From Methanolinea sp. (GTDB lineage: Archaea; Halobacteriota; Methanomicrobia; Methanomicrobiales; Methanospirillaceae), in the NCBI GenBank assembly GCA_018262855.1, contig JADFDO010000006.1, forward strand, positions 1-64,000: a DNA stretch of 64,000 bases. The letters are read 5' to 3'. Position numbers and translations under genes: made by a program. This document shows, in pieces, positions 3,823 to 50,459 of this stretch. Within the stretch, counting starts at the first letter, position 1; every line of letters starts with the position of its first letter. The notes beneath the pieces are model-generated. The model saw only the letters and a program-made list of their open reading frames with translations, searched no databases and was not told where the DNA came from.

Positions 3823-3936
3823 TGCTGCGGGTGGGATCCGAACCCACGACCTCCAGATGTCTCAGATGATGGGCGCGATAGTTCTATGCTCAAAACCCTA
3901 TGAGTCTGGCGCCCTAACCAGCTAGGCCACCGCAGC
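3823..3936 (-). tRNA. tRNA-Met (CAU), elongator type, with intron
   Basis: The acceptor arms GCTGCGG and CCGCAGC pair perfectly and are followed by discriminator A. The anticodon stem is CCAGA/TCTGG with anticodon CAT. A 40-nt intron (about 3859-3898) interrupts the anticodon loop directly after position 37, the canonical archaeal site. The mature tRNA is about 74 nt. The intron in the Met anticodon loop suggests the elongator isoacceptor. The adjacent integrase makes this tRNA the likely attachment site. Confidence 0.92.
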
Positions 3937-19174: not shown

Positions 19175-19270
19175 TGGACTCGACGGGATTCGAACCCGTC
19201 TTTTCGCGGGGCTCCCGCCCTCGACCTGGAGGCGACCTTCGGTCACCATCTATTTTACCTTAAAACAGGA
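19175..19270 (-). repeat. 96-bp unit B ending in a tRNA-Ala 3' end
   Basis: Second of two tandem 96-bp units downstream of tRNA-Ala(UGC), about 92 of 96 bases identical to unit A. Read on the minus strand: T/A-rich start, a GGTGACC-GAA-GGTCGCC hairpin, a GC-rich hairpin (GCGGG/CCCGC), then the T-arm and acceptor 3' strand of the tRNA (GGGTTCGAATCCCG...CGAGTCCA). There is no anticodon arm and no matching 5' acceptor strand, so it is not a tRNA gene. Confidence 0.85.
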
Positions 19271-19366
19271 TGGACTCGACGGGATTCGAACCCGTCTTTT
19301 CGCGGGGCTCCCGCCCTCGACCCGGAGGCGACCTTCGGTCACCACCTATTTTTCCTTAAAACAGAA
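19271..19366 (-). repeat. 96-bp unit A ending in a tRNA-Ala 3' end
   Basis: First unit directly after tRNA-Ala(UGC), same layout as unit B with four or so base differences. Its last 30 nt copy the T-arm and acceptor end of the neighbouring tRNA, including the 3' half of the G3:U70 pair. Open frames translated across it contain the WTRRDSNP pattern and are artefacts of tRNA sequence. Confidence 0.85.
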
Positions 19367-19438
19367 TGGACTCGACGGGATTCGAACCCGTGGCCTTCAC
19401 GTTGCAAACGTGACGATCTACCCCTGATCTACGAGCCC
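19367..19438 (-). tRNA. tRNA-Ala (UGC)
   Basis: Full cloverleaf of 72 nt: acceptor GGGCTCG/CGAGTCC with the alanine identity pair G3:U70, discriminator A, anticodon stem TCACG/CGTGA and loop TTTGCAA giving anticodon TGC. No intron and no encoded CCA. Followed downstream by repeat units A and B. Confidence 0.96.
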
Positions 19439-19611
19439 TTCAAGCACATCAGGAAGTGTGCCTTATTCTGTTCTTCTCCGTACCACATATGTCTTGCTGA
19501 ATGAATGCTTCAAATGAAAACTGCTCTAATCTCCAGCCATCTCATGCCTGCCTTCAGTCAGGGATGCATTCCTGTAAAATTTTAAAAAAATAGATGCAGA
19601 TGAGACTTCCA

Positions 19612-19696
19612 TGGACTTGGCGGGATTCGAACCCGCGGCCTTTCCTTTTCCGGACCGGGGGTTCCACCCCTCGACCCCGGGCACGACCTTCGGTCT
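19612..19696 (-). repeat. tRNA-Ala 3'-end unit at the second Ala locus
   Basis: Related unit downstream of tRNA-Ala(CGC), its 3' end 130 bp from the 3' end of that tRNA. It shares the GACCGAAGGTCG hairpin and GGTCGAGGG core with units A/B, has a different GC-rich stem (CCGGGG/CCCCGG), and ends with the T-arm and acceptor strand CAAGTCCA of its own neighbour tRNA rather than that of the UGC gene. No 5' half of a tRNA is present. Confidence 0.8.
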
Positions 19697-19741
19697 TGAA
19701 TTCATCCAAGAAAAGTGAAAGATATTTGATTAAAATGTCCA

Positions 19742-19813
19742 TGGACTTGGCGGGATTCGAACCCGCGGCCTTTACGTTGCGAACGTAACGATCTACCCCT
19801 GATCTACAAGCCC
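19742..19813 (-). tRNA. tRNA-Ala (CGC)
   Basis: 72-nt cloverleaf: acceptor GGGCTTG/CAAGTCC with G3:U70, discriminator A, anticodon stem TTACG/CGTAA and loop TTCGCAA giving anticodon CGC. No intron. Lies 375 bp from tRNA-Ala(UGC) on the same strand. Confidence 0.96.
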
Positions 19814-50010: not shown

Positions 50011-50459
50011 CTGTGCTCCTCCCTCCTGAAGATATATGCCGCGATTGCAAATGCCACAAAAAGGATGCTCGGCTCGACGACAGTGTCCAGGCCTCGTGTG
50101 TTATAGAGTATCTCATCAAGGATTCCCCCGGGGTGTGCAACAATGGTCGTCCCCATGTAAAGGGTCTGCTTGGAAAGGAAGAGAGAGAATGGCGTCAGAT
50201 ATGCCGTCACGAACCCGGCAGATGGCGAATTTTCAGGGTACTGGGATACTATCTCTGCCTGGACAAATGGCGGTCCCCCTCTGTCATAGGGGTTGAGCGT
50301 GCTCCCGGCAACGATCTTCTTTGGATAGAGCTGGTCCTCACTGTACACAAACGGGAGGAAGAGGAGGGTTATTACCGACATCACCGCGCATGCCGCGGCA
50401 AATACCGGCAGTATATTATCGAAGTTTGAGAGGACCCGCGAGATCTTCTGGATGATCAT
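50007..50459 (-). CDS. ehaF: Eha subunit F (DUF2106)
   Basis: 150 residues with a helix at each end and a central loop (YPKKIVAGSTLNPYDRGGPP, then GTTIVAHPGGILDEILYNTR) that fits EhaF (DUF2106). ATG overlaps the ehaE stop (ATGA). Confidence 0.82.
   Translation of the reverse strand: MIIQKISRVLSNFDNILPVFAAACAVMSVITLLFLPFVYSEDQLYPKKIVAGSTLNPYDRGGPPFVQAEIVSQYPENSPSAGFVTAYLTPFSLFLSKQTLYMGTTIVAHPGGILDEILYNTRGLDTVVEPSILFVAFAIAAYIFRREEHR

What the first reader, a model, noticed from the sequence alone, without database searches (positions are those of the whole stretch)
19175..19813. Structured units copying the 3' end of their own neighbouring tRNA-Ala
Seen directly: tRNA-Ala(UGC) is followed by two nearly identical 96-bp units and tRNA-Ala(CGC) by a related unit. 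Each unit carries the GACCGAAGGTCG hairpin, a GC-rich stem and then the T-arm and acceptor 3' strand of a tRNA. The terminal part matches the adjacent tRNA (CGAGTCCA versus CAAGTCCA), while the internal core is shared across loci. The units have no 5' tRNA half or anticodon arm. From the hairpin to the end they are about 73 nt, tRNA-sized. Options: a small mobile cassette that targets tRNA-Ala 3' ends, a tRNA-like non-coding RNA family processed through the T-arm, or duplication with gene conversion. I know of no description of this.
Basis: partly seen in the sequence, partly recalled or inferred. Interest (0 to 1): 0.75.

Follow-up and report, generated by a model that had tools for sequence, protein, structure and literature searches.

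The report
Hairpin repeat flanked by tRNA-tail copies
The odd units behind the two alanine tRNA genes are copies of a tiny two-hairpin DNA repeat, known so far only from one order of methane-producing archaea, that sits just past gene ends and comes with a second copy of whatever gene end lies upstream; the tRNA tails are by-products of that duplication and most likely not a new tRNA-like RNA.

Summary
tRNA-Ala(UGC) is followed by two 96-bp units and tRNA-Ala(CGC) by a related one, each made of hairpin A, hairpin B, an A-rich tail and a copy of the tRNA 3' end. A covariance model shows that both hairpins are conserved with compensatory changes (65 double-change cells against 20.8 in shuffles). 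The pair 'AB' recurs in 33 of 232 genomes of the order, often 14-61 nt downstream of tRNA-Ala. The tRNA part is not intrinsic: at five protein genes (polB-like, TFS, TiaS and two others) AB is followed by a copy of that gene's 3' end. Two loci have empty sites in relatives. I conclude that AB is a small non-autonomous palindromic repeat whose insertion or expansion duplicates about 35-90 bp of upstream flank, and that tandem growth builds the arrays. No conserved partner for the acceptor strand exists and many tails decay, so a tRNA-like RNA is disfavoured. The agent is unknown: this genome has no detectable RVT_1, Y1_Tnp or DDE_Tnp_1 domain. Whether the duplication is a true long target-site duplication or hairpin-driven template switching is unresolved. 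About 24 further AB copies in this genome ride inside a ~390-bp MITE.

The parts
19742..19813 (-). tRNA-Ala(CGC); its 3' end plus TGGA (19738-19773) is the upstream copy X of the duplicated 36-nt segment
   Evidence: ARAGORN, Rfam, sequence
19646..19698 (-). AB hairpin pair of the unit behind tRNA-Ala(CGC) (GACCGAAGGTCG at 19684-19695)
   Evidence: CM R1, 50.7 bits
19608..19643 (-). Copy X' of the tRNA-Ala(CGC) 3' end (AAAGGCCGCGGGTTCGAATCCCGCCAAGTCCATGGA), 36/36 identical to X
   Evidence: sequence
19367..19438 (-). tRNA-Ala(UGC), upstream copy X for the 96-bp array
19271..19366 (-). 96-bp unit 1: spacer 19344-19366, hairpin A 19327-19343, hairpin B 19301-19323, A-rich tail 19296-19300, tRNA-tail copy 19271-19295
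   Evidence: 49.7 bits
19175..19270 (-). 96-bp unit 2: spacer 19248-19270, hairpin A 19231-19247, hairpin B 19205-19227, A-rich tail 19200-19204, tRNA-tail copy 19175-19199
   Evidence: 44.1 bits

Best explanation
AB, about 50-55 bp of two adjacent hairpins (GGCGACC-loop-GGTCGCC, then GGGTCGA-GGGGC-loop-GCCCC-CGGTCCG) ending in an A-rich tail, is a small non-coding, non-autonomous palindromic repeat of Methanomicrobiales. It comes to rest in sense orientation just past gene 3' ends, most often tRNA-Ala, and the segment upstream (X, about 35-90 bp, including the gene end) is present again immediately after the tail (X'). SHOWN: two structured hairpins with compensatory changes; X-AB-X' at tRNA-Ala in many genomes and at five unrelated protein-gene loci; two empty sites; tandem arrays in which [X-AB] repeats. 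INFERRED: the net event is insertion of AB with a long direct duplication of the target, followed by tandem expansion and partial homogenisation. INFERRED and undecided: whether X' arises as a true long target-site duplication or by template switching at the hairpins back to A-rich microhomology before X. The tRNA tails are therefore duplicated target, not a functional tRNA-like domain.
For: Covariation: 65 distinct sequences, 91.3% of cells paired, 65 double-change cells against 20.8 +/- 3.3 in shuffles and at most 20 in slid structures. X-AB-X' outside tRNA: polB-like gene in G000 (58 nt, 56 identical), TiaS in G205, a membrane-protein gene in G012 (34/34), a gene in G150/G151 (X-AB-X'-B-X''), and TFS in G000/G004/G011. 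Control: 9 of 1000 random window positions reach a repeat score of 18. Empty sites: the polB-like gene in G007 and TiaS in G203/G204/G030/G016 have a single gene end and no AB. X can abut AB directly and X' its tail (G002 57/57, G204 48/48, G230 74 nt, G121 90 nt). The A-rich tail resembles the bases before X at several loci. Distribution: 33 of 232 genomes of the order.
Against: No mobilising enzyme was found: no RVT_1 or Y1_Tnp in any genome of the genus, and G000, G004, G012, G021, G038 and G052 lack DDE_Tnp_1. AB has no terminal inverted repeat. Several free AB copies show no X'. At the polB-like locus 26 nt between X and AB are not in X', and at TFS X is about 130-140 nt upstream of AB, so a clean duplication flanking AB needs later changes there. 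The tRNA-Ala association across four families could mean function or vertical inheritance rather than repeated insertion.
Confidence: 0.66

Rival explanations
1. A tRNA-like or tRNA-processed non-coding RNA family: hairpins A and B replace the 5' half, and the T-arm with the acceptor 3' strand guides processing.
For: Hairpins A and B covary; units are conserved next to tRNA-Ala over several families; the tail is often identical to the tRNA.
Against: The same architecture occurs with protein-gene ends that contain no T-arm. No conserved partner for the acceptor strand: the alternative pairing with hairpin B needs TCGA and is absent behind CGC tRNAs. Whole-unit folding z-scores are -0.1 to -1.8. 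Tails are decayed in G021, G026, G035, G216 and G225.
Confidence: 0.12
2. Plain tandem duplication: AB is an old 3'-flanking hairpin of these genes, and hairpin-driven replication slippage copies the gene end repeatedly, with no mobility of the free form.
For: Perfect 110-bp tandem repeats in G002 and 96-bp arrays here; A-rich microhomology at the joints; no mobilising enzyme found; decayed AB at orthologous TFS and membrane-protein loci in relatives.
Against: Empty sites at the polB-like gene and TiaS show that AB itself was gained, or lost in every compared relative. AB copies sit at many unrelated loci of one genome.
Confidence: 0.14
3. Remnants of tRNA-targeting integrative elements: X' is the attR tRNA fragment of a tyrosine-recombinase element and AB its residual end.
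For: Tail copies begin at the variable loop of the tRNA, a plausible att location (established knowledge); cassette-like transfer between isoacceptor loci in G033.
Against: Nothing but AB lies between the repeats in the units seen; protein-gene loci behave the same; no AB in viral contigs except one chance coding hit. Tyrosine integrases were not searched for.
Confidence: 0.05
4. AB is an RNA scaffold followed by a guide (X') directed at the neighbouring gene, in the manner of an omegaRNA or CRISPR-like RNA.
For: X' follows a structured element at a fixed position and tracks its own genome's gene: at TFS it carries CTTGCATTCT in G000 and the gene's CGCGTTCTGG version in G004 and G011.
Against: No effector gene was recognised among the neighbouring ORFs looked at (not systematically annotated); X' extends to 90 nt and is often decayed. 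TnpB and Cas effectors were not searched for genome-wide.
Confidence: 0.03

Closest known systems
REP / REPIN elements mobilised by RAYT (Y1) transposases (PMC3116915, PMC2817692)
   Same: Tiny extragenic palindromes, non-autonomous, dispersed, often paired or tandem
   Different: No Y1_Tnp in the genus or in any sampled genome of the family; AB is two unlike hairpins in direct order, and is flanked by long direct repeats
IS1549 / IS1634 (IS1634 family), which make long, variable direct repeats of 8-514 bp on insertion with no mechanism proposed (PMC2266710)
   Same: Unusually long, variable direct repeats around an insertion; family favoured in Euryarchaeota
   Different: These are full insertion sequences with a transposase; AB is about 53 bp without inverted repeats, and six AB-bearing genomes lack any DDE_Tnp_1
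Prokaryotic MITEs (PMC10969869)
   Same: Short non-coding mobile repeats; AB is carried inside one in this genome
   Different: Free AB has no terminal inverted repeats and is flanked by long rather than short direct repeats
rtT repeats of E. coli tyrT (Rfam RtT; from memory, not found in the paper library)
   Same: Tandem units downstream of a tRNA gene, each containing a copy of the tRNA 3' end
   Different: Bacterial, 178-bp units as recalled; no Rfam match here and no dispersed hairpin core known to me

Membership tests
tRNA-like RNA | Closed acceptor stem joining 5' and 3' strands | tested here: not met
   No conserved 5' partner; folds differ between units
tRNA-like RNA | Compensatory change in the helices | tested here: met
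   Hairpins A and B covary, but this does not tell RNA from DNA hairpins
REP/REPIN | RAYT/Y1 transposase in the host lineage | tested here: not met
   PF01797 absent from all sampled genomes of the genus and family
REP/REPIN | Short extragenic palindrome, many copies | tested here: met
   About 30 copies in G000
SINE-like retroposon | Reverse transcriptase available | tested here: not met
   PF00078 absent from the whole genus
SINE-like retroposon | A-rich 3' tail followed by target duplication | tested here: met
   Tail GNAAAA(G) directly before X' at most loci
MITE | Terminal inverted repeats | tested here: not met
   Free AB has none by inspection; only the ~390-bp long form has GGGTATAGTG...CACTATACCC ends
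IS1634-type insertion | DDE transposase in the genome | tested here: not met
   No PF01609 in G000, G004, G012, G021, G038, G052
Integrative element remnant | Integrase gene next to the att site | not tested
   No integrase search was made; AB is absent from IMG/VR apart from one chance hit
Known Rfam family | Score at or above gathering threshold | tested here: not met
   Only the tRNAs reach threshold in the window

The most novel reading that the evidence does not exclude
A hairpin pair that, with no transposase or reverse transcriptase of the tested kinds in the host, makes the cell's replication or repair machinery re-copy the adjacent gene's 3' end behind it again and again, so that the copy keeps tracking the gene: a self-spreading element driven by host template switching.
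Probability: 0.2. Interest if true: 0.78.

Novelty: new variant of a known kind. Interest (0 to 1): 0.5.

Why it matters
It explains tRNA-tail arrays that could be mistaken for pseudo-tRNAs or a new RNA class (ARAGORN calls false tRNA-Cys and tRNA-Ser in two of them). It adds to Methanomicrobiales a mini-element with exceptionally long flanking duplications and no obvious mobiliser. Long variable direct repeats are an unexplained oddity of IS1549/IS1634 (PMC2266710); here many natural cases, with decayed, fresh and empty sites, make the question testable.

Tried and rejected
Rfam at a permissive threshold gave only T-arm matches to tmRNA and weak chance matches. Viral contigs: one hit, a chance match in a coding region, and none for the tail-proximal pattern. 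A direct-repeat scan of the MITE-embedded copies found no long flanking duplication. The class-level search held the same number of genomes (232) as the order, so distribution outside it is untested. Shared proteins next to dispersed copies: mainly vertically shared neighbours. A conserved tRNA-like fold across units was looked for and not found. Paper searches found no description of these units; the library lacks most subscription journals. One alignment script timed out.

Full report
OBSERVATION. On the minus strand, tRNA-Ala(UGC) (19367-19438) is followed by two 96-bp units (19271-19366, 19175-19270) and tRNA-Ala(CGC) (19742-19813) by a related unit. Each unit has hairpin A (GACCGAAGGTCG), hairpin B (GGGTCGAGGGCGG...GCCC), an A-rich tail and then a copy of the tRNA from the variable loop or T-arm to the discriminator. 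The copy behind tRNA-Ala(CGC) is 36/36 identical to its tRNA and the following bases.

FAMILY. A BLAST search with the unit in 61 related genomes found further tRNA-tail units and, separately, copies of the hairpin core alone. Marking T-arms that belong to no complete tRNA gave units behind tRNA-Ala in many genomes of the same genus, the same family and other families of the order. A covariance model of the two hairpins (R1) recovers all three window units and about 35 copies in the window's genome. Across the order 33 of 232 genomes have strong matches. On 65 distinct sequences, 91.3% of pair cells are standard pairs, with 65 double-change cells against 20.8 +/- 3.3 in shuffles and at most 20 in slid controls. 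Both hairpins are therefore conserved as structures; this does not tell RNA from single-stranded DNA.

NOT A tRNA MODULE. At G000:C11 the same AB lies behind a DNA polymerase B-like gene (my reading of the protein, not tested against a library) and is followed by a 58-nt copy (56 identical) of that gene's 3' end. The same occurs at a TiaS-like gene in G205, at a membrane-protein gene in G012 (34/34), at a gene in G150 and G151, where the order is X-AB-X'-B-X'', and at a TFS-like gene in G000, G004 and G011. Gene names are my reading of the translations. So X' is whatever lies upstream, and at tRNA-Ala that is the tRNA tail. A comparable flanking repeat is rare by chance: 9 of 1000 random window positions reach a score of 18.

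EMPTY SITES. In G007 the polB-like gene end runs straight into sequence that aligns, without gaps by eye, with what follows X' in G000; AB and the duplicate are absent. The TiaS-like gene ends without AB or X' in G203, G204, G030 and G016. The membrane-protein and TFS loci carry AB or decayed AB in several relatives, hence older events.

BOUNDARIES. Where copies look fresh, X reaches the first base of hairpin A and X' starts at the end of the A-rich tail (G002 57/57; G204 48/48; G230 74 nt with 70 identical; G121 90 nt with 81 identical). The bases before X often resemble the tail (AAGAAGG against GAAAAGG; GCATAAC against GCAAAC). This fits either an insertion with a long direct duplication or replication that, after copying the hairpins, re-primes upstream on microhomology. 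The polB-like locus has 26 unmatched nt between X and AB, and at TFS X lies about 130-140 nt upstream, so later rearrangement or the second mechanism is needed there.

ARRAYS AND TRACKING. Tandem [X-AB] arrays occur in the window and in G002, G011, G019, G230 and others. X' usually matches its own tRNA; in G033 units behind tRNA-Ala(UGC) carry the CGC tail, so units can move between the two loci. Several genomes carry decayed tails (G021, G026, G035, G216, G225), which argues against general selection on the tail. At TFS the short X' shows CTTGCATTCT in G000 and the CGCGTTCTGG version in G004 and G011, as the gene does in each; I have no settled explanation.

ncRNA READING. The acceptor strand has no conserved partner. 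An alternative pairing with hairpin B appears mainly where the acceptor contains TCGA, i.e. behind UGC-type tails. Folding z-scores of whole units are -1.2, -1.8 and -0.1. Nothing here shows a transcript, and expression could not be tested.

AGENT. RVT_1 and Y1_Tnp are absent from all 13 genomes of the genus. DDE_Tnp_1 is absent from G000 and from five other AB carriers. AB is not in viral contigs apart from one chance coding hit. Other enzyme classes were not searched.

SECOND HOME OF AB. About 24 of the 27 non-tRNA matches that I inspected in this genome lie inside a ~390-bp MITE with ends GGGTATAGTG...CACTATACCC; 20 were caught by a pattern and four more by eye. These show no long flanking duplication, so the MITE moves by another route and merely carries AB.

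COMPARISON. REPINs are similar in size and palindromic nature but are tied to a Y1 transposase (PMC3116915). IS1549 and IS1634 make direct repeats of 8-514 bp by an unexplained route (PMC2266710) but are full insertion sequences. The E. coli tyrT rtT repeats look alike in layout (memory only). I file AB as a member of none of these and call it a new variant of the palindromic mini-repeat kind.

Noticed in passing
L007-L026, L076-L103 (G000, e.g. C27:6917-6968 and C29:53806-53857): A ~390-bp MITE with terminal repeats GGGTATAGTGnCA.../...TGACACTATACCC, about 24 copies seen, carries AB inside a further stem (CCGCCG...CGGCGG). Similar copies occur in other species of the family. No partner transposase was identified.
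   Followed up: partly
L078, L139, L149 (downstream of the TFS-like gene): A 13-22 nt copy of a coding segment of TFS after AB follows the synonymous differences of its own genome's gene, although it is very short for gene conversion.
   Followed up: partly
L134, L135, L138: AB directly upstream of an orthologous gene (protein starting near MPVHTSLMKRTILQVALD) conserved in three species without X'; possible 5' UTR structure.
   Followed up: no
L031:1517-1584; L041:384-524: ARAGORN calls false tRNA-Cys and intron-bearing tRNA-Ser genes in AB units, an annotation trap.
   Followed up: yes
window 3823-3936 (-): A tRNA with a probable intron scores 56.8 bits in Rfam but was not reported by ARAGORN; conversely ARAGORN's tRNA-Asp at 50253-50331 does not reach the Rfam threshold.
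   Followed up: no
L038:1370-1473, L202, L041: Hairpin B alone is tandemly repeated (three times in L038), so B can multiply without A.
   Followed up: no
L147 after X': A second palindromic repeat (GGGGAGCAGGAGTGGGCTATACGCCCACTCCTGCGGGGGATAC) occurs twice directly downstream.
   Followed up: no
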